Shown here piece after piece: positions 3,104 to 54,235 of a DNA stretch of 64,000 nt. Origin of the DNA: Zopfochytrium polystomum (taxonomy: Eukaryota; Chytridiomycota; Chytridiomycetes; Chytridiales; Chytridiaceae); contig JAIVFJ010000160.1 in NCBI GenBank assembly GCA_025765615.1, positions 62,001 through 126,000 on the forward strand. The letters run 5' to 3'. The notes under the pieces were generated by a model. That model was not told the origin of the DNA. It worked only from the letters and a program-made list of their open reading frames with translations, and ran no database searches. How positions within the stretch are numbered: position 1 is the stretch's first letter; every line of letters starts with the position of its first letter. The translations under genes were made by a program, and so were the position numbers.

Positions 3104-3853
3104 CTAATAAACACAATTAAGTTTTTCTTCTATATATTTTTGACGAATATTGTCTTCAACTTGTTTACTTTTATGAAAACTTTCATCACATTCGACTGCT
3201 AATTTATATTGTGGAAAATATAAATCTATTCTATACTTATCAACGTGAAATTGTGTTAACATAGTTTCATTTTCAAAAACTTTTATTATGTGTAACAAAG
3301 TTTCACTTTCTATCTGAAAAGTATCAACAACATTCATGTTAAAATTTCTTGCAAGCATTTCTGCGAATGGACTTCTGGATCTTGTCAAAAACACTTGTAC
3401 ACCACGTTGAGTTAAAAATGTTGTGGACTGATTGCGATTTTTAGAATCTTTAATATAAAAATTTTCCTTTTCGCTTTGACTTATTGTTTGAAGGGAAGTT
3501 CGTATGGCGTGAATTTGAAGTGCTTTTCCAATGTCAATCGCACAGTAATATATGACGTCATCTTTTATTAACGTTCTTATATCAACTATTTTGCTATTAA
3601 TTGTTACATTTATAGAAGACTGAATCATATGCGATGGTGGAGAATAATGATATTTCAATTTATTTCAAACTTTTAATTCTGTTCTAATTGCTTTTATACC
3701 AAGGAGCTCTCCTATATCATTTGCTTTAAAAAGTGGATCATCAATCGTTCCATATACATGAATGTTAATACCTTGAAATACTTTCGCTACAACTGTATTA
3801 GATAGTTCCATCTTGTTTTTATACATAATACCTATTTTTATATTTAAATACAA
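3104..3853 (-). pseudogene. BRO/MSV199-type protein with nuclease-like C-terminus, broken
   Basis: The upstream piece (3853-3665) contains a BRO-N-like segment, PLFKANDIGELLGI. After a break around 3660 the second piece (3658-3104, 184 aa) repeats a similar motif, CAIDIGKALQI, followed by TFLTQRGVQVFLTRSRSPFAE, the conserved helix-turn region of the BRO/MSV199 family of large DNA viruses. The C-terminus has YRIDLYFPQYKLAVECDESFH, an acidic pattern like the restriction-endonuclease-fold domain often fused to these proteins. Known BRO proteins bind DNA and affect host chromatin or transcription; the nuclease activity is inferred. It is divergently arranged with the small gene at 3883 across a 29-nt AT-rich gap. 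Confidence 0.65.
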
Positions 3854-3882
3854 ACGCGCGTCTGTTTTATTTAAAGAAAAAA

Positions 3883-4155
3883 ATGGTGAACATTAAGATG
3901 TTGGATGCTGATATTGTAGACAAATTAAACAATTCTTCACTTAGAGATTTTATGAGGATATATTTGATCGTAAGGGAGAGATATTCTAAATTAAGAGATG
4001 AAGATTCAGGTAAAGTCTCCAGAGCTCTTTATGGAATTCAACATCAAGATAAAGAATACGAATACACTAAAAGATACCAAGACAAAATACGCGCGTTAAA
4101 GAAAAATAAGATACATGAAACTGAAAGTTCGTTGGAATCATTTCTCGTAAATTGA
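3883..4155 (+). CDS. Small basic hypothetical protein, 90 aa
   Basis: ATG at 3883 opens a 90-codon frame ending in TGA. The product is highly charged and probably helical (RDFMRIYLIVRERYSKLRDED, then a Lys-rich tail), with no signal peptide, membrane span or recognisable domain. I do not recognise a family. It starts 29 nt from the divergent BRO-type gene and ends about 60 nt before the second tail-fibre gene, so the compact spacing supports it being a real gene of the viral segment. Confidence 0.45.
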   Translation: MVNIKMLDADIVDKLNNSSLRDFMRIYLIVRERYSKLRDEDSGKVSRALYGIQHQDKEYEYTKRYQDKIRALKKNKIHETESSLESFLVN

Positions 4156-4212
4156 GTTTCATTTATAGCTTCATTTACCTGAAAATTTATTGTTTGTGTA
4201 AAGTAACAAGAA

Positions 4213-5180
4213 TGGTTCTATCTAGTTCAGGAAATTTAAGTTTTTCTACTTTGAATAAGTATTTTAGATTCACAAGTTCAGGTACCAACAAATGTGACAT
4301 CAGGACTTTCTTTTACAATTCATAACAAAGGAAGTACTTCCACAAATACGAATGTTTATGTTGCATTAGGCTCATCGACCACTGTTGGTTCTCTTTGTAT
4401 GTTGCGCAAAGGAGATCATGCAGGACTTTTTGCTTTAAAAAACACTATCGGCAGTCCTTATGATTATCGAGTTACACTAAATAGGACCACTGGTATTGGG
4501 ATTAGAACTAAAACTATTACGTTAACAAAGACCTATACAAGTGCTGCGTGGAGTCCAAGTCTTGGTCTTTTTGTTGCTGTTTCTGTTGAAGGGTATTCTG
4601 CTGTGTCAAATGATGGAATAAACTTTTATGAGACAAATTTAGCATATACCACTAATCAAAGTACTCCATTGATCTTATGGGTCCCTGAATTTAATAAATT
4701 CTTTTGGTATTACAACACAGTTCAATACATGTATGTTGCGTACTCGAGTGATGCTGTAAACTGGACCACAACCATTGCTATAGGAGGTGCGGGTTACATG
4801 ACATCTATTGTTTGGTGTCCTGAAATTAAGACATTTGGATGTGCTTTATATTACAATAGTGGTGACACTACTTTATATTCCAGTGTGGATGGAATAAACT
4901 TTTCAAATGGAATTTCTACATCAACACCTCAATTATATTCTGGTATATGGTCTCCTTATGATTCTCGAATCTATTATGTAGTACTGTCGACCGGAAAACT
5001 TTTTTATCATATCGTAGGTACTAATTCATTCAGTGGTGGTGGTGGTACTGCTTTGACAAATAGTTCTAATTACACTTCTAATTATGGAAATGGTTGTTAT
5101 TTTCCATCCAAAATGGCTATGTTATACCCTGGGTCATCAAATCACATACAAGTTATAGTTCAAGGCAATATTCTAATAGC
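4213..5180 (+). pseudogene. Tail-fibre-like / Asp-box protein 2, deleted and LTR-truncated
   Basis: ATG at 4213 gives MVLSSSGNLSFSTLNKYFRF, matching the start of the paralogs at 1408 and 6279. The conserved fibre-shaft part is missing and the frame changes near 4280. It resumes with TSGLSFTIHNKGSTSTN and then Asp-box-like blades (AAWSPSLGLFVAV, VWCPEIKTFGCAL, IWSPYDSRIYYVV). Coding ends at 5180, where a solo-LTR-like repeat starts; the last in-frame residues after that point come from the repeat. An internal deletion, a frameshift and a truncation make this a relic. The role is as inferred for its paralogs. Confidence 0.6.
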
Positions 5181-5889
5181 TGTGGTTGTCTTTGGTGTCT
5201 TCCTTGTGTGTGGGAGTGGGTATTGACCTTCCTTGCTTCTAAGACAGGTTATTCTCTCTGGCCTGGTGAGGCAGAGGTCTGTCTCCTGGTAGGATGAAGC
5301 AAGAAGAGTCCCACTGTCTCCCACCCTGGTTGCACCCTCTTCCTTGGATTGAGTTGGAACACTCTCCTTGGAGTGAGAGAAGTTGTGTCTGGTTCTGTTA
5401 AGCGGAAAACAGTTCTGATTTGGTTCAACAGGCACCTCTGCATACTAACTGTTCCTTGTGTCTGCCCTTTGTCTCTCCAACCCCCTCCAACTCAGGGTTT
5501 GACTTGTTGTTTATTTCTTTTGTTGTTTCTTTTGATGGGTTGTGGTGACTTGTCACTCCCCTTACCAATTCAGTCAGTTCTGTCTCTGGTCTAACTTGGC
5601 TTTGGCCTTGTGCCCCAGATGAAACCCTTCTGTGTCTTGCACCAGAGGATTATGCTTTCTTTTGTGATTCTGTCTGTTTCATATGCTTTGGTGTGAGAAA
5701 CCCCTCTTTTGTGTTAGAGATTTATTTGTGTTTTTCTTGGGCTTTTTAAGACTCCAAATACACTTTCCTGTCTAGTGCCCCTAGACACCCTCCTTTTGCC
5801 CCTTTTCATTAGTCAGGATTGGTATTTAGGTCCATGCTCTAGTTTCCACCTATAGCCCTAGGTGAGGAGTTAGAGAGCACAGTCTCACA
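5181..5889. mobile_element. Solo-LTR-like dispersed repeat, copy 1
   Basis: About 709 bp that begins TGTGGTTGTC and ends CAGTCTCACA, with TG...CA ends. It aligns through most of its length with 57369-58170; shared blocks include AAGCAAGAAGAGTCCCACTG and the 3' block GGTATTTAGG...GAGAGCACAGTCTCACA. In the second copy a gag-like frame lies next to it, so this is probably a solo LTR. Base composition differs sharply from the AT-rich viral flanks. No target-site duplication is visible and the flanking coding sequences do not match each other. Confidence 0.55.
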
Positions 5890-5890
5890 A

Positions 5891-6076
5891 GAATGTCGTC
5901 GTATTACTGATGAATATGACTTTTACTTGCAAGAATATGAAATCACTCCAACTCACGTTTTCGTTCGTAAAGCTTGTAGTCTTGCTTATTCTTTACATCG
6001 TTCGAAGACACCTGGAAATAGAACAATTCATCCAATTTATTGTGACATAAAATGTCAGCTAAAACATTTGATATAA
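5891..6076 (+). pseudogene. C-terminal remnant of an unrecognised viral gene
   Basis: Immediately right of the LTR-like repeat a frame of 61 residues runs to TAA at 6074-6076. It has a protein-like composition (ITDEYDFYLQEYEITPTHVF, then a Cys/His-containing end, HPIYCDIKCQ). It does not look like the Asp-box protein on the other side of the repeat. I do not recognise the family. The missing 5' part is not nearby, so sequence was lost when the repeat became fixed here. Confidence 0.35.
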
Positions 6077-6278
6077 ATGTTGAGTGATGTTACTTGTATT
6101 TTTTGAAATTTTTACATAACATTGTCCAAATGTTTATGTAAAATCCTTTCTTTAGCATTTTTCTGGATACATTTGTGTAAGATTTTATGTACTTGCTCTC
6201 GTGTTTGTAATATAGATAAAGAAATGGATGTCTCAAACTATTTGACACAAATATTTTCTATGCTCAATGTAATAAGAA

Positions 6279-7693
6279 ATGTCGTTGGCTTCTGCCAGTA
6301 ATCTCAGTTTCTCTCTTATGAATGCTTGTGTCAGATTCACAAATGGAAATCTTGGCATCAATACCACTGCCCCTGCCTATGCCCTTGATGTAAATGGCTC
6401 TCTCAATGCTACAAACTTTTTGCAAGCTGGAGCCACTATTTCAGGCGGTGGTTCTAATGCTACTGTTACAGTTTCTTCTAGTAGTTCACTTTCATTCACA
6501 TCACCCACAAATGTCGTTGTAAAAGGTCAAACTTCTAATACTTTTCTATACCTTCCAGCAAGTCTTTCAGCAGGTAACAATGTTACTATCACAAATTTAG
6601 GAGGCACTTCTGGTAACTTTAACACAAGTGTTATCATTAAAATGGGCTCTTCAAACACTTCAGGTGGTGTTGCTCGTCTTGATCCCGGTGAATCAGTTCG
6701 TATTGTTGCAACAACTTCAAACCCAACAATTCCAAAACAATTACAAACAACTTTCTATAGAAATCCGAATCAAGGACTCAAAAACTTGAAAGGATCTACC
6801 AGAATCATTCCCAATTCAAGAAACTGGGAAAGCGTTGCTTGTAGTCCTGACTTAGGTCTATTTTGCGCTGTAAATTATGGATCTGCAGCTTACGTAATGA
6901 CAAGCAATGATTCAATCAATTGCGTTGAAAGAACAATCCCAAACACAAGAAACTACGCATCCATTGGTCTTCTGAACTTGGACTTTTTTGTGCAGAGTGT
7001 TCAGGTGGTGCAGCTGTTGTTTTAACAAGCTCTGATGGTGTTAATTTTATAGAACGTTCTATTCCCAATACACGACTATACGCTTCAATTTGTTGGGCGC
7101 CTGACCTTCTTCTTTTTGTCGCTGTTTGACTTGACGTAGCTGTTGTTTTAACAAGCTCTGATGGTGTTAATTTTACAGAACGTTCTATTCCCAATTCACG
7201 ACAATACAATGCAATTTGCTGGTCATCTGAACTTGGAATTTTCTGTGCTGTTTGTCGAGACGCAGCTGTTGCATTGACAAGCTCTAATGGTGTTACATTT
7301 ACAGAACGGTCTATACCCACTGCACGACAATGGTGGTCAATTTGTTGGGCGCCTGAAATTGGTAAATTTTGTGCAACAGCGTACAATACAACAAACGTGT
7401 TAACAAGTTCAGACGGTGTCACTTTCACTGAAAGTAGTGTGTTTTCGAAACTGTTCTATTATGTACAGTGGTCGTCTGACTTACAATTATTTTATGCAAT
7501 AGATTATAGCAATACAGGATACATCGCTTATTCTTCGGACGCTGTTACATGGTATGAAAAACTTGAGTTTCCAACGACTTTGGCTCCTATTTTAACTTCT
7601 TATTGTTCACCTCTTAAAACATTTTGTGCGGTAAATTATTATGGAAACACTGTGGGAACAACTGGTAACTTTGCTTTTACAAGTTTCACTTAA
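6279..7693 (+). pseudogene. Tail-fibre-like / Asp-box repeat protein 3, frameshifted
   Basis: The protein starts MSLASASNLSFSLMN and contains FTNGNLGINTTAPAYALDVNGS, the same fibre signature as the paralog at 1408. A Ser/Thr/Asn-rich beta region follows (residues 50-150). The C-terminal half is a row of near-identical Asp-box blades (LTSSDGVTFTERSIP; SICWAPEIGKFCA), whose DNA is also tandemly repeated between about 6900 and 7440. The reading frame shifts at least twice, near 6960 and near 7130-7260, before a clean ending at 7693. High repeat identity suggests recent blade duplication before decay. A virion-fibre role is inferred. Confidence 0.6.
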
Positions 7694-38772: not shown

Positions 38773-41700
38773 TCATCTCCCCCTTTTAGGCCTCTTCTGC
38801 AACTTGGTGGGGTACCTGGTCTTAAACTCAAGCAGAAGGTCTTGGCAGTGAGTGAGGTTTGACTCAGGCTCCCAGGTGTTGTCAGCATCTGAGTAACCTC
38901 TCCACTTAACAAGGAACTTGAGTGTTCTTCCAAACCACTTGGCATCCAAGATTTGTTCAACCTCAAATTCCTCTTCACCTTCTACCTCAACTGGAGGAGG
39001 AGGAGGAACAACTCTGCCTGGAATGGAATTGGCCACAAACTTCTCTAAAAGGCTGACATGGAAAACTGGGTGGATCTTCATGGATGCAGGGAGATCCAGC
39101 TTGAAGGTGACTGGATTGATTTGCTCCAAGATCTTGAAAGGTCCCAACTTGAGGTTGTCTAGCTTGGGACTTGGTCTTTTGGTCTGCAAGTTCTTCCTCA
39201 GAAGCCAAACTTGCTGACCCACAGCAAGGTCATGGTCCATTCTGTGAGTGTTGGCAAATCTTGAGGCATCTTCTTGGGCTTGCTTCAGGGTGGAGTCCAG
39301 GAAGGTGCTGATGATCTTGAGCTTATGTAAGTGTGAAGCCGCAGCAGAAGCCTGGACATTGGATAGGGTCTCTTGTCCCAGAAGATCTCCTCTTGGATTG
39401 AAGCCATAGGTTGCAAAGAAAGGAGATAGCTGGGTGCTTGAGTGGAGAGAATTGTTGAGAGCAAATTCTGCCAGTGGAAGGAGGGTGGGCCAATCATCCT
39501 GTTGATAGCTGACATAGCACCTCAAATACTGCTCCAGAGTCTGGTTTGTTCTTTCTGTTTGTCCATCAGTCTGAGGGTGATAAGCAGTTGACAGTTGAGA
39601 CTTGATTCCAAGGGCTGCTGTGAGTGCTTTCCAAAATTGAGATCTGAACTGAGGTCCTCTGTCACTGATGATTGACTGAGGCAGCCCATGGAGCCTGAAT
39701 ATGTGCTGCAAAAACAGGTCTGCTGTTCCTTGTGCATCTATATTCTCAGTGCAGGGGATAAAATGGGCCAACTTTGTCCTTCTGCAGATGACAACAAGGA
39801 TAGAGTCAAATCCATGGGATGGGGGCAGTTTCACAATGAAGTCCATGGATATTGATGACCAAGGGCTGATGGCAATTGGGAGGGGCTCCAGAAGTCCATA
39901 GGGCTTGTGTCTGCTGGATTTGTTTCTTTGACAGGTTTCACAGCTGCTGACATAGTTCTTGATGTACTTCCTCATGCCTGGCCAGTAGAAGTCTCTGGAA
40001 ACAAGCTCATATGTCTTGTGCTCTCCTGGGTGTCCAGCTGTTGCTGCATCATGCCTTGTCTTGAGTATCTCAAGTTTTCCCTCTTCTTGGCTGATTTGAA
40101 TCTTGTGAGGCTTGGGGTCCTTGGAAATAGCATGGGCCCACACACTGTCAGGAAGCAATGAAAGGTGTGTCTTGGATGGTGGGGTGAAACCATCTCCCCC
40201 TTCAGGTGCAAGGTCTGTTCTTCTTGACAGGGCATCAGCCACAGTGTTAAGGTGACCAGGAGAATAGCACAGCTTAAAGTCATACTCAGAGAGCAGTTCA
40301 GCCCACCTGGCATGCCTCTGCTTGAGCAACCTCCTTGCCCTGAAGAAGGTGAGGTTCTTGTGATCAGAATAGACAGAGATGCCTTTAGAACCAGCCAAGT
40401 AGTGTCTCCAGAATTTGAATGCTTCCACAATTGCAAGCAACTCCTTGTCATGGACTGTGTAGTTACACTCAGCACTGTTCAGCTTCCTGGAGTAATATGC
40501 CACTGGGTGCAGAGGAGCAGAGGGGTCCTGAGAGCTTGGCTGGGACAGAACAGCGCCAAGGGCATAGTCTGAGGCATCAGTTTCCAAGGTGAAGGGAAGC
40601 AAGGGATCCACATGCTTAAGGAGTGGTGCACTTGTGGTTGCTGTCTTAAGAGCTAGCCAGGCTTGCTCTGCTGCTGGGGTCCATTCAAACTTGGTGGTCT
40701 TCTTGGTGAGATCAGTGAGAGGTTTGGCTATGGCAGAATAGTTGGCAATGAAGGTTCTGTAGAAGTTGCAAAATCCAAGGAAGCTTTGAACATCCTTGAT
40801 GGAATTTGGAGCCTTCCATTCAAGAATAGTTTGGATCTTGTCTGGTGCCATGGAGATCCCTTTGTCAGACACAATGAACCCCAAAAACTCAATGGAGGTC
40901 TTGTGGAATTCACACTTCTCCAGCTTTGCATAGAGGTGATGCTGTCTGAGTCTCTCCAAGACAGTCTTGACATGTCCCATATGGCTTGCAGTGTCAGATG
41001 AAAATACCAGGATATCATCCAGGTAGACAATGACAAAAAGGTCCAGAATATCCCTGAAGATGTCATTCATCATGCCTTGGAAAATAGCTGGAGCATTGGT
41101 AAGTCCAAAGGGCATGACCAAGTACTCAAAGTGACCGTATTTGCATCTGAAGGCAGTCTTCCATTGATCCTGGGGCTTAATTCTGACCAAATTGTAGGCA
41201 CCTCTGAGGTCAATCTTGGAAAATATCCTTGCATGGCTCAGTTTGTCCAGTAATTCAGAGATGAGAGGCAGTGGATAGCGGTTCTTGACTGTCATCTCAT
41301 TGAGATCTCTGTAGTCCACACAGGGTCTCAGTCCCCCATCCTTCTTCTTGACAAAAAAGATGGGAGCTCCAGCTGGTGACTTGGAAGGTTGGATGAATCC
41401 CTTGTTCAGCATTTCTTCAATGTATTCTTGGAGGGCCTTGGCTTCTGGTGGAGAGAGGTGGTACAGTGGCTTGAAAGGTGGGCTGCAAGTTTCATCCTTG
41501 AGTGGGATTTCACAGTCATAAGGCCTCTGAGCTGGTAGCAGGTCTGCCTTGGTCTTGGAAAACACATCAGCATAAGGGAGATATTCTTTTGGTAGCTTGG
41601 ATGCCAGCAAAAGGTCTGATGGGTCCAGGTTGTTGTGCTCCTCAGCAGTGGGGCTTGAATTCTTGACTGGGAACTGTGATTCTTGAATCTTTGACTGAGA

Positions 41701-42312
41701 GTTCTGTTCTTGGCAAAGACTGTGAGCTGTGGAACTTGAATCTTGAATGTGGACTGTGAACTGTGGTACTTGAATCTTTGACTGTGGGTTCTGTGAACAA
41801 GAGTCATGGCCATGACTGTGAGCTCTATGAGCTCTACTTGAATCTTGACTGTGAACTGTGAACTGTGGAACTTGAGTCTTGGCTGGCTGTGAATCTTGAA
41901 TCAAGGGCTTGAGAGCATGAGACTTGGGGGCTTGACTTGAGTTTTGGGTGACTGTTCCGATTGGTGGAGGTTGGACTTGACCAGTGACCCAATCAATGGC
42001 AGGGTTCTGGGCTTGCAGCCATGGTAATCCCAGGATGACAGAGAATGTGGGTGAGCCAAGATCCAATACTTCCAGATTGACCATGGATGGTGGAAAGTCT
42101 TGGATGTGGAGGTTTAGCTTGGTTTCATGGCTGATTTCCTTGAACAGAGCATGATTGGCAAAGTGGACCTTGAGGGGTGTGGATTTCTTGATCGTAGGAA
42201 TGGCACAAGACTTGGCAAGGGTGGCATCAATGATGTTGCAGGATGATCCAGAGTCTATAAGGGCCTTGGTTGTGATGGTTGACTTGGGTGAGAGTTGAAT
42301 CTTGACATCCAT
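38773..42312 (-). CDS. Gypsy Pol: protease-RT-RNase H-integrase-chromodomain
   Basis: A 1179-residue uninterrupted frame. An aspartic protease sits at the N-terminus (KALIDSGSS, catalytic Asp20; ILGLPWL). RT follows with KKKDGGLRPCVDYRDLN, KIDLRGAYN and VIVYLDDILVFS. RNase H has LETDASDYALGAVLSQ and YSDHKNLTFF. Integrase has an HHCC finger (HPGEHKTYELV...CETCQRN), then the DDE core (SMDFIVKLPPS, IISDRGPQFRS, STAYHPQTDGQTERTN). The last 70 residues form a chromodomain (VEQILDAKWFGRTLKFLVKW, YSDADNTWEPE), which targets chromoviruses to specific chromatin. The 5' end of the Gag-Pol frame is truncated. Confidence 0.95.
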   Translation of the reverse strand: MDVKIQLSPKSTITTKALIDSGSSCNIIDATLAKSCAIPTIKKSTPLKVHFANHALFKEISHETKLNLHIQDFPPSMVNLEVLDLGSPTFSVILGLPWLQAQNPAIDWVTGQVQPPPIGTVTQNSSQAPKSHALKPLIQDSQPAKTQVPQFTVHSQDSSRAHRAHSHGHDSCSQNPQSKIQVPQFTVHIQDSSSTAHSLCQEQNSQSKIQESQFPVKNSSPTAEEHNNLDPSDLLLASKLPKEYLPYADVFSKTKADLLPAQRPYDCEIPLKDETCSPPFKPLYHLSPPEAKALQEYIEEMLNKGFIQPSKSPAGAPIFFVKKKDGGLRPCVDYRDLNEMTVKNRYPLPLISELLDKLSHARIFSKIDLRGAYNLVRIKPQDQWKTAFRCKYGHFEYLVMPFGLTNAPAIFQGMMNDIFRDILDLFVIVYLDDILVFSSDTASHMGHVKTVLERLRQHHLYAKLEKCEFHKTSIEFLGFIVSDKGISMAPDKIQTILEWKAPNSIKDVQSFLGFCNFYRTFIANYSAIAKPLTDLTKKTTKFEWTPAAEQAWLALKTATTSAPLLKHVDPLLPFTLETDASDYALGAVLSQPSSQDPSAPLHPVAYYSRKLNSAECNYTVHDKELLAIVEAFKFWRHYLAGSKGISVYSDHKNLTFFRARRLLKQRHARWAELLSEYDFKLCYSPGHLNTVADALSRRTDLAPEGGDGFTPPSKTHLSLLPDSVWAHAISKDPKPHKIQISQEEGKLEILKTRHDAATAGHPGEHKTYELVSRDFYWPGMRKYIKNYVSSCETCQRNKSSRHKPYGLLEPLPIAISPWSSISMDFIVKLPPSHGFDSILVVICRRTKLAHFIPCTENIDAQGTADLFLQHIFRLHGLPQSIISDRGPQFRSQFWKALTAALGIKSQLSTAYHPQTDGQTERTNQTLEQYLRCYVSYQQDDWPTLLPLAEFALNNSLHSSTQLSPFFATYGFNPRGDLLGQETLSNVQASAAASHLHKLKIISTFLDSTLKQAQEDASRFANTHRMDHDLAVGQQVWLLRKNLQTKRPSPKLDNLKLGPFKILEQINPVTFKLDLPASMKIHPVFHVSLLEKFVANSIPGRVVPPPPPVEVEGEEEFEVEQILDAKWFGRTLKFLVKWRGYSDADNTWEPESNLTHCQDLLLEFKTRYPTKLQKRPKRGR

Positions 42313-42733: not shown

Positions 42734-44494
42734 TCAATTCATAGCAGGAGTTGTAGATCCAACCTTGCTAGTAGATCCCTGTGGTCCAATTTCAGTCCTA
42801 AGTCTCTGAATCGTACTATCCACTAGTTCCCCTGTGATCACTTGATCATGTAACTTTTCGTTGAGATGTGTAAGGCTTAAATTCTCCATTGGAAACGAAC
42901 GATTGTCAGTTTGCTCTCCATAATTATAGGCTCTACCCACGGCTTGAGAGCCATCTACAGGTTGACTGTCGGGAGTAGATACACTCTGGCTATATGTTGG
43001 GAGCACGATAGTTGAACGTGAACCCAGAGATTTAGACTGGTTTCTCTGAGAACCAATTGTGATAATAACCTCGTTGTTACCAGTTAAGAATCCAAATAGA
43101 GCCCCACCATTGTCCCCAGCAAACTGCATGGAAGTTGGAAGCGCTACACCTAGAAGCTGGTTTTCCATTGTCTGTCTGCCAGGAGGCCCTGGCGCATTAT
43201 CCTTAACATCAGCCTCACCTGGAAGCCTCGGTGCAAATTGAGCTGGAAAACACAGCAGTGCCCTGGGTTTCTATGTTTCTACAGATGTCGAGAATTTCCG
43301 TCGGAATACAAGCAGGAGTTTCCGCACTAACGGCGTTCTGAGTCAATGGAAATACACTACTGGACACATACGGCACATTTGAACTATCAATTGTCCGCTC
43401 ATATGACACATCAGTGTGGTCTGGGCCAGGAGAATAGTGCTGTCTGACGCTAAAAGCTGCAGTTCCAGTCTCAACATTAGGCCTACCGTTCTCAGACCAA
43501 GTTGCCACTTCAGGCTTCGGTCTCGTGCTTCTAGCTTGCCAGAAAGGAAAGAACGCTGAACTTGGAGCTGCGGATTGATAATTCTTTTGTACATACGGAG
43601 TGTCGTTGTAGAGGAGCGTCTTACGACAATAGAAAAAGATAATGAATACTATGATGGAAAGGAGAAGGACTAAACCGGTAGGAAGAATAACTGCAAGAAG
43701 AGGAAATTGGTAAGAGGATAATGATGAATCAGAATTCGAATTGGAACCAGGGATCAATGCGCTAGTGCTACTCCCTGTGGAAGTCATTCCTGTAGCACCA
43801 GCTGTGGAAAAGGAGAATTCGATCCTGAGATGGTTTGTACAGCTGTGTTTCCACTGACAGGTATAGTCGCCGTCACAGACGAAGTACCGGACTGAATGGC
43901 AGTCGTAAATTCCTGTGAAGTTTGCGCAGTATCGACCGTAACTGCCGGAAGAGAGTTAGTCCTTTGAGCGGAAGTCGTAGCTTGAGTACTTGCTGTATTT
44001 CTAACCTTTGCTGTGTAAGTTGTAATGATCGGATTATTTCCATCGCACCCGCTCTGCTGAATACTTCTATTGTCAGTAGAATCGCAAGTTACATAGTTGG
44101 TAATTCCGGACGCGATTGAAGTCAGGTAGGGACAAGTGAAAGATTGGCTGCTTACAACTCCGCATATGTTTACAATCGCCATTGATATCTGGTCAATGGT
44201 ACCACCAGAAGAAGATACTGCACCGCCTATGGAGCAAATGCTATTGAAATTGGCCGTTTTGCTTACGGTAAGGTCATAATTGTAACCACCAGCGGAGGAA
44301 CAAGCTGATGCAATATCAATCATGTCTGACTGCTGTAATCCATTCTTGCAATATTTCTCCAAACTAGCAGCTATAGTGTAAGAAGGGTTTATTCTTCCAC
44401 TGGAATCGACAGAAGTATCGACAGTTCAAGTAGCGGTTGCATATTGTGCACTCAAGGAAACAATCAAAGCCAATACTGCAGGTGAAATCACCAT
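42734..44494 (-). pseudogene. Type I membrane protein of segment B, one stop and two frameshifts
   Basis: From ATG 44494 a signal peptide (MVISPAVLALIVSLSAQYATA) is followed by a TGA at 44428-44426. The same frame then continues through a Cys-containing ectodomain (CSSAGGYNYDLTVSK; CGVVSSQSFTCPYL; VTCDSTDNRS; GCDGNN) and a Ser/Thr-rich stalk. Near 43800 the frame changes into SALIPGSNSNSDSS and a membrane span (FPLLAVILPTGLVLLLSIIVFIIFFYC), then a cytoplasmic tail. Near 43245 a second change leads to the last 150 residues (42734). Overall about 570 residues with signal-ectodomain-stalk-TM-tail order. A virion surface or host-derived receptor-like role is inferred; no family is recognised. Confidence 0.55.
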
Positions 44495-44966: not shown

Positions 44967-45034
44967 TGTTAGTCACACTTTCAAGGCTAAAATTTTAGTA
45001 GCGAGACTCGTTTGATAGTGTCCAGGGCAACAAG

Positions 45035-47699
45035 ATGTCTTCACCTAGTTCTCCATTGGAGTTGCACAATCACAGCTACAGTTCAATCTCAACAATGTCC
45101 AGTGACGATATAAGCTCATTGTCAACAGTCAATCCCAATGCTCTGCCTGTCAATATAGTTATAGATGGTGAAATACTCTGCGCTGACAATTATCATGATT
45201 CTTATGCAGCATGCCTAAGAACAAGGGCAATGTCAAGGATAGGCTCAGCATTACCACTCTTAATCGGAATAAACAATTTCCAAGTTGAAGTCGTAAGAGA
45301 GGCTACAATAGATATTTCACGCACCAGTATGAGCTTATATAATTCACTCGAAGACAGCAGCAAATCCGCAAAGGAGATCTCAGTTCACATAGCCAGCTTC
45401 AATATGGTAGGATCCACTAGGCATAGAATCTCACATTCCCTAATAGACGAGCTCAAGGCAGGATTGGATCCCATCTCGTCATGGATAATTTCAATTGAAA
45501 TATACGCTGATATATCAATTAGTGACCTACCCTCGGTATGCAGATCGGCTTATTTGAATTTCCATAGATTGCAGTATCTCAGAATAAAAGACATGGAGGT
45601 ATCATTTGAGCTTCCGCACTCAGGTTCGAATACGGTTAGGACTCCAGACGACAATTTCGATTATAACGTGGAATTTATCGTCAGTGGGGAGATTGCTGAT
45701 TTCACCGGAAAGTGTAGAGCCAAGAGGAGGGCCAGCAGACTAAATCACTTCTGAAGTTGCATATTCATGAGCTCTTAAAACTGGAAATGCCTATCTTGGT
45801 CGAAGACGGTAAGTCAATTGCCCCCTTCGAAATGCGCAGATACATGACTACGGGTTCAAGGATAGACTCTGCACCCAGGGTCGATGTACTGCTCAGAAAG
45901 CAACTGAACGTTATGAATCTCAAATTTGTGCCTCACCAAACAAGAGACATTAGATGGAGAACGAGGTGTATGATGACCGAACATGAGAATTGTTCTGGCC
46001 ACTTAAGGGTTGGAATCATCGACCGAGAATACGAGGCTTGGATTTCCACATTTCATGACAGTCGAGGATGACACATTCACCGATGTGAAACAACGAATGA
46101 ACAATGACCTTTTCGACCGGGAACTTCCAAGTTTCGATTTTGCCAAACAAATGTCATCTCTATTGCTATCGAAGAGCGGTATGTTCAGGGGTGGTATATT
46201 TGAACTGAAACCAATGACAGCAGCCAGAGGAATTGCCACTCTGACTTGGGAAGGAAACCCACAAGAGATATTCATACCAAGAATTTGGGCCTCGAGAATG
46301 AAACTACCGTATAGGGAGACATCAAAAGATGGATCTCTGAGATCGCCCTACTTCTCCTTTATGAATATCAGGGAGGGCGACTACGGGGTAGTCCTTAGGT
46401 GCCCAGTTATTTCTGTAGGTTCAGTTCAACCCGTAAGAATAAGACTATGGGATAATCCTACAATTGGATGCCATCCCTCCATGTGTCCGAAGATGGGTTT
46501 AGATTTCGATGGGGACGAAGTGCATTTTGCTGTAGTCTCTGGTAGCGACTCTAAGTTGGAGATTCAAATGGCAATTGAGAAGGAACCCTCGCAGAAGTTT
46601 TCTGACTCCTTTGTGAATGAGGCCGTAACTGAGTATTTCTCTGGCCTTGAAGACAACGATGGCAGCGATCTCGTGGAGGACTGTATCAATAATGACTTTA
46701 TGATGGCATCTACCTCTAGCATCACACAGCTGAATTTCATGAGCTTCGATACTAAATACCATAGGCTCTGCAAGGTGAAGGACGAATACAGGCAGATAAT
46801 GGTATCGTATATGGGTGCTAAGCCTCTGTACCAGGTCGTAGTTGATAAGAGCATGAAAAAGATAGGACATACCATTGATACTCACATGAGTGTTGCTAAC
46901 GGATATGTCTATGCTAGACAGTTCAAGGGTCTTGCTCTCGAATGCAGCACCATTGGAAACTCAACAGAGCCACTGTGGCTGGACAGATCCAAGGCCATGT
47001 TGTGGAGTAGCCCTTCAATACCGAGGGATATCGGGTCTTATGGAATTCCAGCATTGAGATTGATAACTGAGATGACAAATCTTGTTATACAGCGAACACT
47101 CGATCGTGCTAAGCACGTGACAACTGACTTCTAGAACTTACTTTGCCGACTCGTTCTTTTCCAACCTCGAACCATGGGTTGTTGTCGTGGAATCAAAGTC
47201 AAAGTCCAACCCGCAAAAGAGCATATACAAGACGTATACCATGCATGAGGCTGCCAAAATGAGAGACAGCCATGCCATTGAGAATATCGTTGTCTGTTCT
47301 TCGAGGGAAAAGTGTATTGGGTATAGCGGTTACAATCACACATCTGATATCGAGCAGCTCTTTAAGCTCATGATCAGGAATACGGCGTACATTGTTCGAT
47401 TGCTGAAATTGAAGGCTACTACTTCAGAGATATACTCTGTCGCCTCTATTTTGACATACGCAACTTGTATGGACAAGGGCCAGGAGAAACTGACCGACAC
47501 CAAGAGCGTTAACTTTCTAAGGTCTACTGCTTCATCCTACTTGCATACTGTATTATACACAAATTACTCCAGCGTTTCTAGCATACCAGTTGGGATGTAC
47601 AGTAAGCAGAGAGATACACATGGTCAACATTCGTCAACATTTGCTATAACCACTGGAAATTATCAGGGGTTGCTCTCAATGTCGATAACAAGACAGTAG
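45035..47699 (+). pseudogene. Divergent multisubunit RNA polymerase largest-subunit-like protein (RPB1/beta'), frameshifted
   Basis: Four successive frames read as one protein of about 880 residues: 45035-45754, 45757 to about 46050, about 46050-47134, and about 47137-47699. The diagnostic part is VLRCPVISVGS about 35 residues ahead of GLDFDGDEVHFAV. This has the spacing and form of the double-psi barrel in RPB1/beta' (Arg-x-Pro, then NADFDGD, whose three Asp bind the catalytic magnesium). Further blocks (YMTTGSRIDSAPRV, MGAKPLYQVVVDK, SNLEPWVVVVESKS) are not recognisable to me. It is far shorter than cellular RPB1 (1400-1900 aa). Relatives may be viral or linear-plasmid polymerases. Cellular RNAi RdRPs also have a DxDGD barrel, but with a different spacing. 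Confidence 0.6.
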
Positions 47700-47770
47700 C
47701 ACAATTTTAAAACTTATTTGCAACTCCTATGATCCTGAGGCTCCTTATGAAGTTCGTAGTTTTTACCTTG

Positions 47771-48409
47771 TTATTCATAACTTCGTACAGCATATATTGG
47801 ATTCCTAGCTAGCATTTGCTCACTAGCCTCAGTTTTACCGAGGAGGCCAATGACACCGGCAGAGTCAATCCTAAAGTATGTATCTTTAAGTCCGTATTTC
47901 TCTGGAAACTTGAATCTTAGATTATGCTGTTCAGACATAACTTTCCCAGACGCGTCTTCTCTCTCAGATGGAAAAACTCTCAGGGTCTCTTGTGTTATTC
48001 CACATAAGTAAACAATGTCGTCAACTTGTAGCAGCACGTTCAAGCATGAGCCAGACATATTGACAAATGTAGGCGGAGAGTAAGGTACTGACTTGCCCGA
48101 GTCACGGAGCTTCTGCAAAATTGCCATTGACATTCTGCCTTTCAGTCTGACAACGGGGTCAGGGTGTATACTAGATAAATTCGGAGGGTTCCAGTTGCTA
48201 GTGCCAGGGTGATGCCTAACTATCATATTGTATGCCTGCGACACTTCGTTGGTGGTAATCTTATCCGCTCTCACAGTTGCAGTTGCAACGCAGGGCTGTA
48301 GGAGTCCGATTTCGACTTTCACCTTTTTTGTGAATGCGTCTTTGTTTTTGTAACCGATGTTATTATTAGCTTTTTGCTGTTCGAGGGCGAATTGAGTGCC
48401 ATGGACCAT
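47771..48409 (-). CDS. Hypothetical protein of segment B, 212 aa
   Basis: This is an intact frame from ATG 48409 (MVHGTQFALEQQKANNNIGY) to the stop at 47771. Mixed alpha/beta, with KVKVEIGLLQPCVATATVRA near the start and CLNVLLQVDDIVYLCGITQE in the middle. It ends with AGVIGLLGKTEASEQMLARNP. There is no signal peptide or span, and I recognise no family. It is convergent with the RNA polymerase-like gene (71 nt between stops) and divergent from the gene at 48478 (68 nt). Confidence 0.55.
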   Translation of the reverse strand: MVHGTQFALEQQKANNNIGYKNKDAFTKKVKVEIGLLQPCVATATVRADKITTNEVSQAYNMIVRHHPGTSNWNPPNLSSIHPDPVVRLKGRMSMAILQKLRDSGKSVPYSPPTFVNMSGSCLNVLLQVDDIVYLCGITQETLRVFPSEREDASGKVMSEQHNLRFKFPEKYGLKDTYFRIDSAGVIGLLGKTEASEQMLARNPIYAVRSYE

Positions 48410-48477: not shown

Positions 48478-49277
48478 ATGTCTACGGCGATTGACGCGAG
48501 ATTTTGTAGACATGGTTACTTGAGAACATCTGTGTCTTGTGGTGATTCTGACTTCAAGCTTAATGCTTCACTATTTGTAAACAACCAGGGATGTAGGTCG
48601 GGCCCAGTGGCTGGTACAGAAGATAGGGATGATGAGAATTTCTTTCTTCTGCTTAGGTATGCGATTGGTAGGTCCCTTGATTTCCTCTGCAGAAGGATTG
48701 AAATATCATCTGTTTCAGTTTTTCCTCCGCCCGCTTCACTCGACGACTCAATTAGCGAGTCTGAGTCCAAGGAGCTGGGTAAACTCGCAATGCTACAGTT
48801 ACAGAGTCCGCTTAAGACCTCCAGGAGCATAACGTCGTTATAGCCACGGCCCCGAAGTTCGTAATTCTGAATGGGGAACAGTCTCCGCTTGGAATATCGT
48901 GGTACTACTCGGCTAAGAAAGACATAAGTATAAGAGAACAGGTAATACAGTTTAGCAAGAAAACACTCACTCGTATAATCGATCCGGGCGTTGATAATGT
49001 CTGCTGGCTAATGGTAATACCTACTGGAGAGTTTCTGACGGAATATCTGTTGCAAAATGAGATCTTCCAAACCTCATTGCTGATGTACCTCACCAATGAC
49101 GGATCCACAACATCCCACGTTGCAATTTTGGGGGGAACAAGATTAGTGGTAACTCCGACTCAGGAATTTAGGACTGTACAAGGGACTCTCAATTTATACG
49201 ACAAGGAACTCAGGAATTCGAGACTGGTAGGGCCGTTCTGCAGAGACTGTGTTTTGCAACAGATATACTCCATTTGA
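48478..49277 (+). pseudogene. Hypothetical protein of segment B, one frameshift
   Basis: The first part (48478-48843) includes FCRHGYLRTSVSCGDSDFKL and an acidic linker SLDDSISESESKELG. Near 48830 the frame changes and continues with TAPKFVILNGEQSPLGISWY, REQVIQFSKKTLTRIIDPG and MVIPTGEFLTEYLLQNEIFQ to TGA at 49277. Combined length is about 266 residues. It is globular, without membrane spans, and I recognise no family. The gene starts 68 nt from the divergent gene and is followed 38 nt later by the next plus-strand gene. Confidence 0.5.
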
Positions 49278-49845: not shown

Positions 49846-50247
49846 TGTTGAGGTTACCGTAGTGACCGAAGGTTGAAGTTGGAGTTGTTAGAGCAACGAG
49901 GCGTTGACAGGTAACCGAGTTTCTTAATTTAGAAGAAAAACTTCTTTATTCTCATATTATTGATGTCCCTATTTGTTCATGTTGGCCTGACGCGTCCTTC
50001 AGTCCAGAACGAGAATCCGAGCATATCTCACCTCTTATGTTCTAAGCCATGAACGCTGGAATTGCTCTTAATACGCGGACCAGTGCTTAGCAACTCTTAA
50101 TTCCCCCTTAACCGCATCCGCCCGCGTGGGACTGGCTTACACCTGATGCGGGGAGCGGACAGCGTAGCCGTCGCTTTCTCCTGAAGAACCTTGGCGTCCT
50201 GGAGTTCCAAGTGAAGCGCTAAGCACGCCGCGGAGGGTTTATCAACA
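49846..50247 (-). repeat. 3' LTR of the copia element
   Basis: 402 bp, TGTTGAGG...TATCAACA. One difference from its partner at 55785-56186. Between it and the pol stop (50248-50425) is an untranslated region of 178 bp with a polypurine tract next to the LTR. Confidence 0.97.
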
Positions 50248-50425: not shown

Positions 50426-53400
50426 TCACTCAAATCTCTGTGCATCAGGGATAGCAGGAATGATACTTGACTGTGTAAGGTCAGAATAACTTGCTAATCC
50501 GAGCAGGGATGTAAGTTTGAGGTGCTGCGCTGTTGGTAGCGCTTTAGTAAGTATATCTGCAATCATATTTTCAGACTTGCAGTAAAGGAGTTTGACGTCC
50601 TTTCTCTCAATATGATCCCGCACAAAGCTTGTGCGGATATCGATATGTTTTGTTCTCGAGTGGTGAATCGGATTTGTAGCAATAGCCATAGTCGATTGGT
50701 TATCCTCACATATTATTGTGGGGTTAATTACTGGAAGATCAATTTCAGCTAATAGTTGTTGGAGCCATATTGCACCCTTGATAGCTTCAGCTAAAGAATA
50801 GTATTCTGCCTCTGTTGAAGAGAGGGAAACCCTATCCTGCTTCTTACTAAACCATGTAATTGCTGCTCCAGACATCATGAAGACATGTCCCGAGCGTGAC
50901 TTTCTCCCAGTTTCCTCTCCGTAACTAGCATCGGCATACCCTTCTGGGCCTGTGTAGCCTACTGCTTCGTTAAGCTCCTCTGATGAAGCGTTTGTTATGA
51001 GTGTTAACCTTTTTGCGCCTTTGCTGAAACGCAGTCCAAAGTCAAAGGTACCTCGTAAGTAGCGTAAAAGGCGATCTAGAGCCTGTTTGTCTGACTCTGT
51101 TGGTTTACTCTGATACTGCGAGAGAGTGTTAACTGTGTATGAGATGTCCGGTCGTGTAAGGTTTGCTACATATGCAATTTGCATCAGTGTGCTTCGAAAT
51201 GACTCAGAGTCCTTTGCTGATAAAAGTGGTGACTCATCGTCGTGACGCCAAGTTGTTGACATCGGTGTTGACTTGGACTTGATAGGTAGACCGCTAAGTG
51301 TATTCCAATAGCTGGCTTCTTCTAGGAGCCGTTGTGCGTAATTTCGCTGGGATAGGAAGAGATCTCCGTTTATTCGGTCGATTTGAATACCGACTGCATA
51401 CTTAGCGTTAAGGGAGTCCTTTATCGAGAAGCGAGTTCGAATGATGTTCTGCACCTCAAGGATATCTTCCTTTGTGCGCCCTGCAAGGAGAACATCGTCT
51501 ACGTACACGAGGGCAATACAGCATATCTTGCCATTTGTATCTCGCTTAACGAAAACGCAATGATCAGACTTGCATTGTGAGAAGCTACTCTCTTTGAGGA
51601 AATCGCGGAGAGTGAGGAACCACTGCCGACCAGACTGATGTAAGCCATAGAGACTCTTTAACAAGCGGCATACGTAAGCTAGACCTCCAGGTCCGAACTT
51701 AACAAAACCTTCTGGTTGCTCCATGTAATTGGGCAAGTCCAGGTTCGCGTTCAGATACGCTGTGTCTACGTCGAGCTCGCCAAGTTCGTAATCTAAGCAG
51801 AGCGTAGCAGCTAGGATTGTGCGAATTGCATCCATCCTAACTACTGGAGAGTAGGTTTCCTCATAATCCCTTCCGGGCACCTGAGTATAACCCTTCCCGA
51901 CAAGTCTTGCTTTAAAGCGTTTTAGGTAATCGTCATCGTCTAGCTTATAAGCGAAAACCCATTTGGATTTCAGGAAGGATTTGATGTTGCCGCGGGGCAC
52001 TAGTTCCCATGTTTTGTTCTTTGTCAATGCCTCATATTCTTTATGCATGGCAGCCATCCAATATTTTGCGTACGGACTAGCTAAGGCCTGTTTGTATGTC
52101 ATCGGAAGAGGGGGCAGATCTCGTGAGTGTATCTTCTCTGTGGGAAAAACGGTTGGATCTTCAATTGCGGAAGCCAAACAGACTTTCACTTCGAGATACG
52201 TTGTGCGAAAATCAGCACGGGAGATTCTTCTACGTCGTAAACGTGCCACCATGGCCCTTAGAACTTTCCTATTGTAGGTTGTTCCCCCTGAAATCGCGGA
52301 TTTGGTTTTGAGCTCCGGCAAAGGTACTTCAGAAGCGGCAGAGGCTTTTACTTTGCCTGGACGGAGATTGTAGCGATGTGTGTTACCGCTGTTACCATCA
52401 CGTTCCCCCTGCAAATCCGAGATGGAAGGGGCAGTAGACTCTTCAGAGTCGGAATGGAGGATATCATGAGGAACAGAGTCTTCATCAACAGGAACAGGAA
52501 TAATTTCACTGATAGAAGAGGCGCGGGTGACTGGAGTGGAAGACGAGTTGGAGTCCTCATCATCAGAATAGGTCGGTTCCCAAAAAGAATTCATGGAGGA
52601 GCGTGCCGGGGTGACGGGACCCCAAGCGTGAAGGAGAACGAGGTCGTGAAAACGGGAGATATCCCGTGTAAGAACCGGGAAGATAGTTTCGTGGAAGGAA
52701 ACGTGGAACTGCTCGGTAACCCGGCGGGTGCGGAGGTCGTAAACTAGAATGATGGAGTTTCCTCGATAACCAAGGAAAACGCCAGGGGAACCGCGAGGGC
52801 CTCCGAGACGCCGTTTCTCAGGTGGGATGCGAAAAACCACAAGGCACCCGAAAACTCGCAAATGCTCTATGGAAGGCTTCTTTTTGTGCCAAACCTCGTA
52901 AGGTGTTTTGCCCGTGAAGGAGTGGACAGTGCGATTCTTAATATGAGCCGCGTACTGGAGAGCGTAAAGCGAAAATTGAGTGGGAAGACGCGATGGGAGG
53001 AGCATGCACAGGGCCATTTCTTTAAGAGTGTTAATATTCCTTTCCGCTAGACCATTAAACTCCTTCGTGTAGGAGGGGCTTGGGTCAATTTGGATCGGAG
53101 GATGCTTCGTAGCACACCACTCCTCAAAAGCGATTGTCTTCTTAATTTCGCCGCCATCGAAACGGACAGACCGTGTAGTGGCGCCCTGATAGCGCTCTGC
53201 AGCTTCAAGGACGCCTCGAAAGCGCGAGGATGCTGCTCCCTTGTGAGGGAGCCCATGGACTTCTATCCATCGAGAGGCTTCGTCGACTGTGCATAACCAG
53301 TGTTTTTCTCCTCGAAAACCACGACATGGAAGCGGGACGGAGTCGGTACTCACGCGTCCTAAAATGTCAGTAACTGGTCGGTCGCTTGAGTAAATAGGTT

Positions 53401-54235
53401 GAGCGCGAATTCGTCCAAAATCACAAAGAACACAGGATTTATTGTGATTGGTGGACGTAGAAGAACGCACGCTGTCACCCCCCAAATGCTTTATTGTCTT
53501 TTGGATCAATCCATCAGATAAATGGCCGAACCTCAAATGGAGGAGAGCGGAATCGGCGTTACTGAAGGAAGACGGAGCATTAGCCGAATGGTCGACTGTA
53601 GGAGGTCGCGGCGCTTGGCCGACTTGGGACTCACCGGGATGGGCGTCCCCAACCATGGGTTCGTCAATGGTGGCGCCAGCCCCCCTGTGTTGCGGGAGAC
53701 GCAGAGACGGGCGCATGAGGACCGCGTAGGATGGTCCATGTAAAACTGCAAAGATTAGATCACGTGCACCAGGTCGGCGAAGTGCCGCGTGCTGGGCAGT
53801 GAAAAACATCTGAGCCCCAGTGTGCAGGAGAAGGTGGTTGACAGAAATGAGCGTCTTGCGGAACTCTGGAATATAGAGTGTGTCGGGCAAGGAAAAAGAG
53901 ACGCCGTCAACTTGGAAGTGGAAGTCGCCAATCTGCTGCGAGAGGCAGCGTGTACCGTCAGCGATCACCACAGCAGCGGAGTGGGGGCGCAAGTTAGTGA
54001 AGAAAGATAGGCAGGATGAGATGGTCCTGGTAGCGCCCGAGTCGAGGATTGCGGGGGTAACGCGATCGTGCAGCGCTGAAACCGGCTGGGAGATCTGCGG
54101 CGAACACGGGCCAAGAGGGGACACTTGTAAATTCCTCCGAAGGGAGGACGCACGCAGAGTTGGCCGAAAAGAGATCCTTCGTGAGGTCATCGAGATTGAG
54201 TGTGGGCTCAGATAAGGAAAGCCGTCGGAGACCAA
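50426..54235 (-). CDS. Copia Pol: protease-integrase-RT-RNase H
   Basis: A 1269-residue uninterrupted frame. Protease: AILDSGATRTIS. Integrase: zinc finger HLRFGHLSDGLIQK...CVLCDFG, then the DDE core (CTVDEASRWIEVH; FDGGEIKKTIAF; LAERNINTLKEMA) and the GKTPYEVWHKKKPS/FGCLVVFRIP region. RT: KSKWVFAYKLDDDDYLKRFK, LDVDTAYLNANLD, and VYVDDVLLAG with the catalytic Asp pair. RNase H: SLSSTEAEYYSLAEA, CEDNQSTMAIA, RTKHIDIRTSFVRDHI. The order integrase before RT is diagnostic of Ty1/copia. It overlaps the end of gag by 242 nt in another frame, implying ribosomal frameshifting. Confidence 0.97.
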   Translation of the reverse strand: MVSDGFPYLSPHSISMTSRRISFRPTLRASSLRRNLQVSPLGPCSPQISQPVSALHDRVTPAILDSGATRTISSCLSFFTNLRPHSAAVVIADGTRCLSQQIGDFHFQVDGVSFSLPDTLYIPEFRKTLISVNHLLLHTGAQMFFTAQHAALRRPGARDLIFAVLHGPSYAVLMRPSLRLPQHRGAGATIDEPMVGDAHPGESQVGQAPRPPTVDHSANAPSSFSNADSALLHLRFGHLSDGLIQKTIKHLGGDSVRSSTSTNHNKSCVLCDFGRIRAQPIYSSDRPVTDILGRVSTDSVPLPCRGFRGEKHWLCTVDEASRWIEVHGLPHKGAASSRFRGVLEAAERYQGATTRSVRFDGGEIKKTIAFEEWCATKHPPIQIDPSPSYTKEFNGLAERNINTLKEMALCMLLPSRLPTQFSLYALQYAAHIKNRTVHSFTGKTPYEVWHKKKPSIEHLRVFGCLVVFRIPPEKRRLGGPRGSPGVFLGYRGNSIILVYDLRTRRVTEQFHVSFHETIFPVLTRDISRFHDLVLLHAWGPVTPARSSMNSFWEPTYSDDEDSNSSSTPVTRASSISEIIPVPVDEDSVPHDILHSDSEESTAPSISDLQGERDGNSGNTHRYNLRPGKVKASAASEVPLPELKTKSAISGGTTYNRKVLRAMVARLRRRRISRADFRTTYLEVKVCLASAIEDPTVFPTEKIHSRDLPPLPMTYKQALASPYAKYWMAAMHKEYEALTKNKTWELVPRGNIKSFLKSKWVFAYKLDDDDYLKRFKARLVGKGYTQVPGRDYEETYSPVVRMDAIRTILAATLCLDYELGELDVDTAYLNANLDLPNYMEQPEGFVKFGPGGLAYVCRLLKSLYGLHQSGRQWFLTLRDFLKESSFSQCKSDHCVFVKRDTNGKICCIALVYVDDVLLAGRTKEDILEVQNIIRTRFSIKDSLNAKYAVGIQIDRINGDLFLSQRNYAQRLLEEASYWNTLSGLPIKSKSTPMSTTWRHDDESPLLSAKDSESFRSTLMQIAYVANLTRPDISYTVNTLSQYQSKPTESDKQALDRLLRYLRGTFDFGLRFSKGAKRLTLITNASSEELNEAVGYTGPEGYADASYGEETGRKSRSGHVFMMSGAAITWFSKKQDRVSLSSTEAEYYSLAEAIKGAIWLQQLLAEIDLPVINPTIICEDNQSTMAIATNPIHHSRTKHIDIRTSFVRDHIERKDVKLLYCKSENMIADILTKALPTAQHLKLTSLLGLASYSDLTQSSIIPAIPDAQRFE

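What the first reader, a model, noticed from the sequence alone, without database searches (positions are those of the whole stretch)
45035..47699. RNA polymerase largest-subunit-like catalytic motif in a compact, unassigned gene
GLDFDGDEVHFAV with an Arg-x-Pro element about 35 residues upstream has the form and spacing of the RPB1/beta' double-psi barrel, yet the whole protein would be only about 880 residues and nothing else in it is recognisable. Known families: RPB1/beta', baculovirus-type LEF polymerases, linear-plasmid polymerases and RNAi RdRPs share this barrel. That this is a new viral or plasmid polymerase lineage is inference.
Basis: partly seen in the sequence, partly recalled or inferred. 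Interest (0 to 1): 0.88.

Follow-up and report, generated by a model that had tools for sequence, protein, structure and literature searches.

The report
Fungal virus-like element's RNA polymerase remnant
A chytrid fungus carries many copies, some broken like this one and some intact, of a DNA element that encodes its own compact RNA polymerase, DNA polymerase and probable mRNA-capping enzyme, pointing to a little-known lineage of DNA viruses or plasmids of fungi.

The parts
44988..44997 (.). TAAAATTTTA palindrome about 40 bp upstream of the first ORF; candidate start signal
   Evidence: The same type lies near the starts of POLB/HEL, g349/g294 and RPB2 in C175.
45035..45754 (+). Separate 239-aa ORF of unknown function (A_N), taken as part of the element; decayed homologues precede the RPB1-like pieces on C158 and C88
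   Evidence: No BLASTP match to intact RPB1-like proteins.
45787..46071 (+). N-terminal piece of the RPB1-like gene, with C-x5-H-x2-C-x-G-H motif from 45967
   Evidence: start inferred from alignment with relatives
46010..47134 (+). Catalytic piece of the RPB1-like gene: R-C-P at 46397, DFDGD at 46502-46516
   Evidence: Pfam; PDB; fold
47187..47699 (+). C-terminal piece of the RPB1-like gene in another frame
   Evidence: BLASTP to the C374 RPB1-like protein E 6e-6
47705..47712 (.). TTTTAAAA palindrome between the convergent RPB1-like and g349-like genes; candidate gene-end signal
47771..48409 (-). g349-like gene, convergent neighbour of the RPB1-like gene in clades A, B, C and D; function unknown
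   Evidence: BLASTP E 1.5e-18 to clade B, 2.5e-8 to clade C
49110..49250 (+). Possible remnant of the g265/g294 gene, in syntenic position
   Evidence: tblastn E 0.001 only, 49 residues
49316..49876 (+). g227-like gene; its 3' end runs into the retrotransposon repeat
   Evidence: BLASTP E 2e-9 to D_g227, 44 residues
49846..56000 (-). Copia-like retrotransposon (direct repeats of at least 216 nt at 49846 and 55785; ORF 50426-54235) that interrupts the element; its far repeat may run past 56000, where the repeat search ended
   Evidence: the Copia name is from reading the ORF, no family search was run on it

Best explanation
The finding is a degenerate copy of the RPB1-like subunit gene of a DNA element (virus or virus-like plasmid) present in many copies in the genome of a chytrid. 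Shown by sequence similarity: intact copies of the element encode a compact two-polypeptide RNA polymerase core (RPB1-like 603-792 aa, RPB2-like 749-879 aa), a family-B DNA polymerase, an SF3-type helicase and a protein with capping-enzyme motifs, in a fixed gene order, with palindromic AT motifs between genes. Inferred: the element integrated more than once; it copies its DNA with its own polymerase and helicase, transcribes its genes (perhaps in the cytoplasm) with its own RNA polymerase using TAAAATTTTA-type motifs near starts and GTTTTAAAAC palindromes at gene ends, and caps the transcripts itself. The window copy is apparently dead: it is frame-broken and interrupted by a retrotransposon.
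For: RPB1 identity. RPB2-like partner: Pfam Rpb2_6 1.3e-10, 4.7e-15 and 3e-20 in three clades; profile match to archaeal Rpo2 1.6e-23; NYED and GDKxxTxHGQK invariant in the three. PolB E 2.9e-40; helicase TIGR01613 2.2e-7. Capping motifs KxDG, DGV-AI, YRIK-LT-D and RxDKxxPN shared by the clade D protein and a 32%-identical copy on C64. RPB1, RPB2, PolB, helicase and capping candidate in the same order on 3 contigs, C175, C374 and C94. Four other loci score far higher with PF00623 and are taken as the host's own. Purifying selection: omega 0.06-0.08 at dS 0.24-0.26 for the three clade D RPB1-like copies. Relatives outside this genome. Palindromes: 12 TTTTAAAA sites in 25 gaps against a mean of 0.14 in shuffles, 7 of 7 convergent gaps.
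Against: No capsid, packaging ATPase or terminal repeats were recognised in the stretches read (ATPase and terminal repeats were not searched for). The capping assignment rests on motifs recalled by me; Pfam mRNA_cap_C gives only E 0.07-0.14, the PDB search gave none or two unrelated weak matches; the C374 ORF aligns only from the DGV-AI motif on, so KxDG was not seen there, and it has GN where the others have PN. The coiled-coil-like and 584/636-aa genes are equated between clades by position only, g265/g294 and g550/g227 by weak matches (E 0.007 and 0.003). The RPB1 profile match outside the barrel region is unproved (one search ends at column 262) and both AF2 models are poor outside it (mean pLDDT 45.5 and 49.3). 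The clade B pair C64/C491 shows omega 0.64 on 19 changes. Two of four head-to-head gaps hold neither palindrome. No RPB1 or RPB2 relative was found in IMG/VR except one barrel-only match, and the RPB2 protein search found, besides this genome, only three cellular-type proteins.
Confidence: 0.82

Rival explanations
1. A special case of the above: fragments of an ordinary giant virus (Nucleocytoviricota) integrated in a chytrid, as reported for Rhizophagus, with a divergent RNA polymerase.
For: PolB, both RNAP subunits and capping enzyme are among the Nucleocytoviricota markers used in PMC10640383 (passages). The genome also has one NCLDV capsid match (C206) and one VLTF3 match (C340). The top named BFVD hits are giant-virus RPB1.
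Against: RPB1-like is about half and RPB2-like about two-thirds to three-quarters of the usual size; C206 and C340 hold none of the element matches listed; RPB1/RPB2 have no close relative in IMG/VR; the RPB2 profile scores archaeal and cellular subunits above vaccinia.
Confidence: 0.3
2. Another special case: a chytrid branch of the yeast cytoplasmic linear plasmids (virus-like elements, pGKL type).
For: Same functional set: own RNAP, DNA polymerase, capping enzyme, helicase (for the yeast set; here); small size.
Against: In pGKL2 ORF6 is a beta-beta' fusion, and an element with ORF6 divided could not replace it (PMC6211774, passages); here the two are separate genes. PolB matches PF00136, while PF03175 is just under its cut-off. 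The helicase looks SF3-type, not superfamily II.
Confidence: 0.15
3. A host gene family, for example domesticated Pol IV/V-like subunits working in the chytrid.
For: Several intact copies, three of them under purifying selection; plant Pol V is among the best PDB matches.
Against: Linked to PolB, helicase and capping candidate in the same order; many decayed copies; relatives in a rust-fungus record and other contigs; multi-clade diversity inside one genome.
Confidence: 0.06
4. RNAi-type RNA-dependent RNA polymerase.
For: QDE-1 (5fsw) appears at rank 23 for the Melampsora model.
Against: 588 Foldseek matches at E<=0.001 for the window model; the 50 rows listed are all from DNA-directed RNAP entries; the second subunit is a separate RPB2-like gene.
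Confidence: 0.01

Closest known systems
Cellular/archaeal RNA polymerase RPB1/Rpo1N and RPB2/Rpo2
   Same: Catalytic barrel with DFDGD and upstream R-x-P; RPB2-like NYED, GDKxxTxHGQK, PVRxGEME and C-terminal Cys-pair motifs
   Different: Much shorter; most of RPB1 outside the barrel has no demonstrated match; no other subunit recognised
Yeast cytoplasmic linear plasmids / virus-like elements (pGKL2 ORF3, ORF4, ORF6, ORF7)
   Same: Small DNA element with own RNAP, DNA polymerase, capping enzyme and helicase
   Different: Separate RPB1-like and RPB2-like genes; PolB of the PF00136 type; SF3-type helicase; GC about 44-52%, while the abstract of PMC4431711 (search listing) calls three yeast VLE sets over 75% A/T
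Nucleocytoviricota (giant viruses), incl. the Rhizophagus endogenous element (PMC10640383)
   Same: PolB, RNAP large and small subunits, capping enzyme
   Different: Compact two-subunit RNAP; no capsid or VLTF3 match on the same contigs; apparent block of about 20 kb
Baculovirus/nudivirus LEF-9 and LEF-8
   Same: Two short, separate catalytic RNAP subunits (recalled)
   Different: LEF-9 only at rank 36 in BFVD; sequence relationship not tested

Membership tests
Multisubunit RNAP largest subunit (RPB1/beta') | Double-psi barrel with DFDGD catalytic Asp triad | tested here: met
Multisubunit RNAP largest subunit (RPB1/beta') | Bridge helix and trigger loop | tested here: inconclusive
   hhalign ended at column 262; models low-confidence there. 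A G-F/Y-V-x-x-R-Q-L-K segment resembles the bridge helix by eye only
Multisubunit RNAP | Separate RPB2/beta partner | tested here: met
   on the same contig as RPB1 on C175, C374, C94 (also C491, C48); no match in the window
RNAi RdRP | Both barrels in one chain | tested here: not met
   Intact RPB1-like proteins carry one DFDGD; the RPB2-like partner is a separate gene
Yeast linear-plasmid VLE | RNAP large subunit is a beta-beta' fusion | tested here: not met
   Separate, oppositely oriented genes on C175 and C374; definition from PMC6211774
Yeast linear-plasmid VLE | Protein-primed type-B DNA polymerase | tested here: inconclusive
   PF00136 2.9e-40 and PF03104 3.3e-8; PF03175 24.8 bits, under its cut-off 25.8; priming itself not testable; that VLE polymerases are protein-primed is recalled
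Yeast linear-plasmid VLE | Linear DNA with terminal inverted repeats and terminal protein | not testable with these tools
   Only integrated copies and gene records available
Nucleocytoviricota | PolB, RNAP subunits, D5-like helicase, capping enzyme | tested here: inconclusive
   PolB, RNAP and SF3-type helicase found; capping by motifs only; no tree made
Nucleocytoviricota | Double-jelly-roll capsid in the element | tested here: inconclusive
   The only PF04451 match is on C206, which has no element match; the ends of the element are unknown
Baculovirus-type LEF polymerase | LEF-8/LEF-9 sequence relationship | not tested
   No LEF reference sequences were compared; LEF-9 appears at BFVD rank 36

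The most novel reading that the evidence does not exclude
A previously undescribed lineage of transcription-autonomous DNA viruses or plasmids of fungi (chytrids, rusts and unsampled hosts), neither giant virus nor yeast linear plasmid, with a minimal separate two-subunit RNA polymerase and its own palindromic gene-end code in which one site serves both convergent genes.
Probability: 0.5. Interest if true: 0.92.

Novelty: new variant of a known kind. Interest (0 to 1): 0.82.

Why it matters
PMC10640383 (abstract) states that no dsDNA virus infecting fungi is known. A compact element carrying its own RNA polymerase, DNA polymerase and probable capping enzyme in a chytrid, with relatives in a rust-fungus record and in JGI and other environmental-type contigs, would give that missing group a concrete gene set to search for. 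The two-polypeptide RNA polymerase would be a very small natural multisubunit enzyme, useful for asking what the minimal catalytic core is and for placing yeast linear plasmids relative to giant viruses.

Tried and rejected
RNAi RdRP: rejected (one QDE-1 row told above). Phage tail chaperone hit on 47187-47696 (E 0.0043, under cut-off): taken as chance; the piece aligns to an RPB1-like C-terminus. A 239-aa N-terminal extension of RPB1: rejected, see observation check. IMG/VR scans with RPB1 and RPB2 queries: nothing but one 154,896-bp contig with a barrel-only match (L027); PolB gave 57 loci at 22-35% identity, not followed. The RPB2 protein search returned only this genome and three cellular-type proteins; its words come from the first 500 residues only, before most of the best conserved motifs, so absence means little. 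PHROGs gave no assignment better than E 0.1 for the g349, g294, g227, coiled-coil-like and 584-aa ORFs given to it. Whole-chain folds were poor. VIA-align lists were filled by RNAP chains; absence of other families there shows nothing. Killer-toxin link (LysM-GH18 ORF beside clade B copies): seen only in related duplicated segments (L009, L010, L016), so not counted as evidence for a pGKL-type killer plasmid. Papers: in the listings of ten searches I saw no description of this element; I opened three papers in part and did not open others listed (such as PMC5294986, PMC10120064); the library lacks bioRxiv and most subscription journals.

Full report
What is in the window. ORF 46010-47134 (+) carries GLDFDGDEVHFAV, with DFDGD at 46502-46516 and an R-C-P 35 residues upstream. 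Pfam assigns RNA_pol_Rpb1_2 (27.2 bits, cut-off 25.3, E 5.3e-6). The nearest PDB sequences are Pol V, Pol II and gamma/beta' subunits (best E 2.6e-4). ORF-by-ORF reading shows the gene is in pieces: 45757-46071, 46010-47134 and 47187-47699. The protein would therefore be about 640 residues, in line with full-length relatives of 603, 609, 633, 673 and 792 residues.

The host and the family. The closest database protein, P0001 from Zopfochytrium polystomum, agrees with the window ORF apart from a missing segment, probably a predicted intron, and its later start. Lengths of contigs given for other Z. polystomum proteins (136391, 32779, 51753) equal those of C175, C491 and C384, so the genome is this species' assembly. 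The genome (80.2 Mb, 761 contigs) has 33 RPB1-like matches at E<=1, some of them pieces of one copy, on 18 contigs (33 of 33 candidates scored). By identity and best match they fall into about four clades: A (window, C158, C88, C35, C362), B (C64, C491, C48, C133, C283, C260), C (C374, C94) and D (C175, C7, C491); three contigs (C528, C55, C78) were not assigned. Many are stop-ridden; six matches lie in uninterrupted frames of 623-794 codons. Four other loci (C51, C36, C26, C49) score 78-190 bits with PF00623, against at most 39 for the element copies, and are taken as the host's own largest subunits (the naming is inference). Outside this genome a profile search (8000 candidates scored, the rest not) gave 9 proteins: two of this species, a 603-aa Melampsora americana protein on a 14,385-bp contig, a 609-aa protein on a 19,583-bp JGI contig, a 515-aa protein on a 6,741-bp JGI contig, and four cellular-type RPB1/beta' proteins at E 3.4e-4 to 0.018. 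A further 246-aa relative on a 3,501-bp contig came.

The neighbourhood. On C175 the order is RPB1-like (+), g349 (-), g294 (+), g227 (+), coiled-coil-like (+, by eye), RPB2-like (-), PolB (-), helicase (+), a 584-aa ORF (+), capping candidate (-). C374 and C94 have the order reversed; C374 carries a Gypsy-like insertion and one ORF more than C175 between helicase and the 584/636-aa gene. The five enzymes are matched by similarity; g349 C to D is E 4.9e-4, g265/g294 0.007, g550/g227 0.003, and the coiled-coil-like and 584/636-aa genes are equated by position only. The window keeps RPB1-like, g349, a possible g265/294 remnant and g227 in this order and is then cut by a Copia-like element. No RPB2, PolB, helicase or capping match lies in the window.

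The enzymes. RPB2-like: Pfam Rpb2_6 at 1.3e-10, 4.7e-15 and 3e-20 in three clades; profile match to archaeal Rpo2 at 1.6e-23. PolB: PF00136 2.9e-40 with exonuclease PF03104 3.3e-8. Helicase: P4-family primase C-terminal model 2.2e-7, under its cut-off, with a GDGGEGKS Walker motif. Capping candidate: KxDG, DGV-AI, YRIK-LT-D and RxDKxxPN are shared by the clade D protein and a 32%-identical copy on C64, followed by a VD-I/V-GSG methyltransferase-like motif; the C374 protein aligns only from DGV-AI on and has GN for PN and IDMGAG for VDIGSG. Those motif names are recalled, and family and PDB searches gave no significant hit.

Selection. Three clade D RPB1-like copies differ at dS 0.24-0.26 with dN/dS 0.06-0.08; the C7/C175 pairs of g349, g294 and g227 give 0.06, 0.21 and 0.11. 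The clade B pair (19 changes) gives 0.64 (Nei-Gojobori in my own script). So the D sequences diverged under constraint, most simply as replicating elements integrated separately, although host use is not excluded.

Gene-end signals. After listing upstream sequences I noticed AT palindromes. In 25 gaps (3,701 bp; C175, C374 and window; four narrow gaps were widened by about 4-6 bases into the genes) TTTTAAAA occurs 12 times against a mean of 0.14 and a maximum of 2 in 500 dinucleotide shuffles; it is in 7 of 7 convergent gaps, in five other gaps and in none of the four marked head-to-head. TAAAATTTTA-type palindromes occur 4 times (shuffles 0.02, maximum 1), near gene starts in three of the four; a fifth lies at the RPB2 start, overlapping the gap boundary. 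Two of the four head-to-head gaps hold neither motif. In the two clade B copies looked at (98.6% identical) the RPB1/g349 junction has GTTTTAAAC instead. Counting all variants, with overlapping patterns counted separately and with homologous C7 and C491 copies included, 45 pattern hits lie in 5,044 intergenic bp and 5 in 43,410 coding bp. The motif was chosen after seeing the data, and homologous junctions are not independent. Window 1-42,300 has one TTTTAAAA.

How it probably works. An intact element would replicate with its own PolB and helicase and transcribe with an RPB1-like/RPB2-like enzyme that starts near TAAAATTTTA palindromes and ends at GTTTTAAAAC palindromes, which would serve both convergent genes; its own enzyme would cap the transcripts. 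Enzyme identities are shown by similarity (capping by motifs); signals, location and life style are inference. The window copy is apparently a dead relic.

Comparison. Yeast linear plasmids have the same functional set but a beta-beta' fusion that could not be split (PMC6211774, abstract and passages and section 18 read). Giant viruses have PolB, RNAP subunits and capping enzyme as markers, including the 1.5-Mb Rhizophagus element (PMC10640383, abstract and passages). This genome also has one NCLDV capsid match on C206 and one VLTF3 match on C340, not on element contigs, so a separate giant-virus trace probably exists. PMC7482067 (passages only) took dsRNA and total RNA of Z. polystomum WB228 in a survey of RNA viruses. 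The listings of ten paper searches showed no description of this element; this is weak evidence of novelty because the library is partial.

Noticed in passing
L009:6150-9059 and L010:6165-8331 (two ORFs) (C64, C491), partly L016: A LysM/GH18 chitinase-like ORF, resembling killer-toxin alpha-type chitinases by eye (no family search run), lies divergently beside clade B RPB1-like genes in related duplicated segments.
   Followed up: partly
G000:C206:50226-50384 and C340:1080-1538: One NCLDV major-capsid match and one VLTF3 match in the same chytrid genome, on contigs without an element match: possible traces of a separate giant virus.
   Followed up: no
L090:942-3581 and 3691-6444 (C374, next to the element): Two large ORFs, one with ricin-type lectin domains (Pfam 7.3e-17); not known whether host or element.
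   Followed up: no
L024:6183-7115 (C374): Reverse-transcriptase ORF (RVT_1 1.8e-7) beside the element.
   Followed up: no
L014:3624-4055 (C175) and 15 other matches: A 144-aa ORF with hydrophobic stretches (by eye), near RPB1-like genes on several contigs and elsewhere in the genome (16 matches).
   Followed up: partly
window 38773-42312: Near-intact Gypsy-like polyprotein on the minus strand (name by eye); very similar ORFs interrupt the element on C374 (L022) and lie beside it on C175 (L091).
   Followed up: no
window 43215-44362: Two minus-strand ORFs, one with a membrane-like stretch by eye, perhaps a host secreted or wall protein gene next to the element.
   Followed up: no
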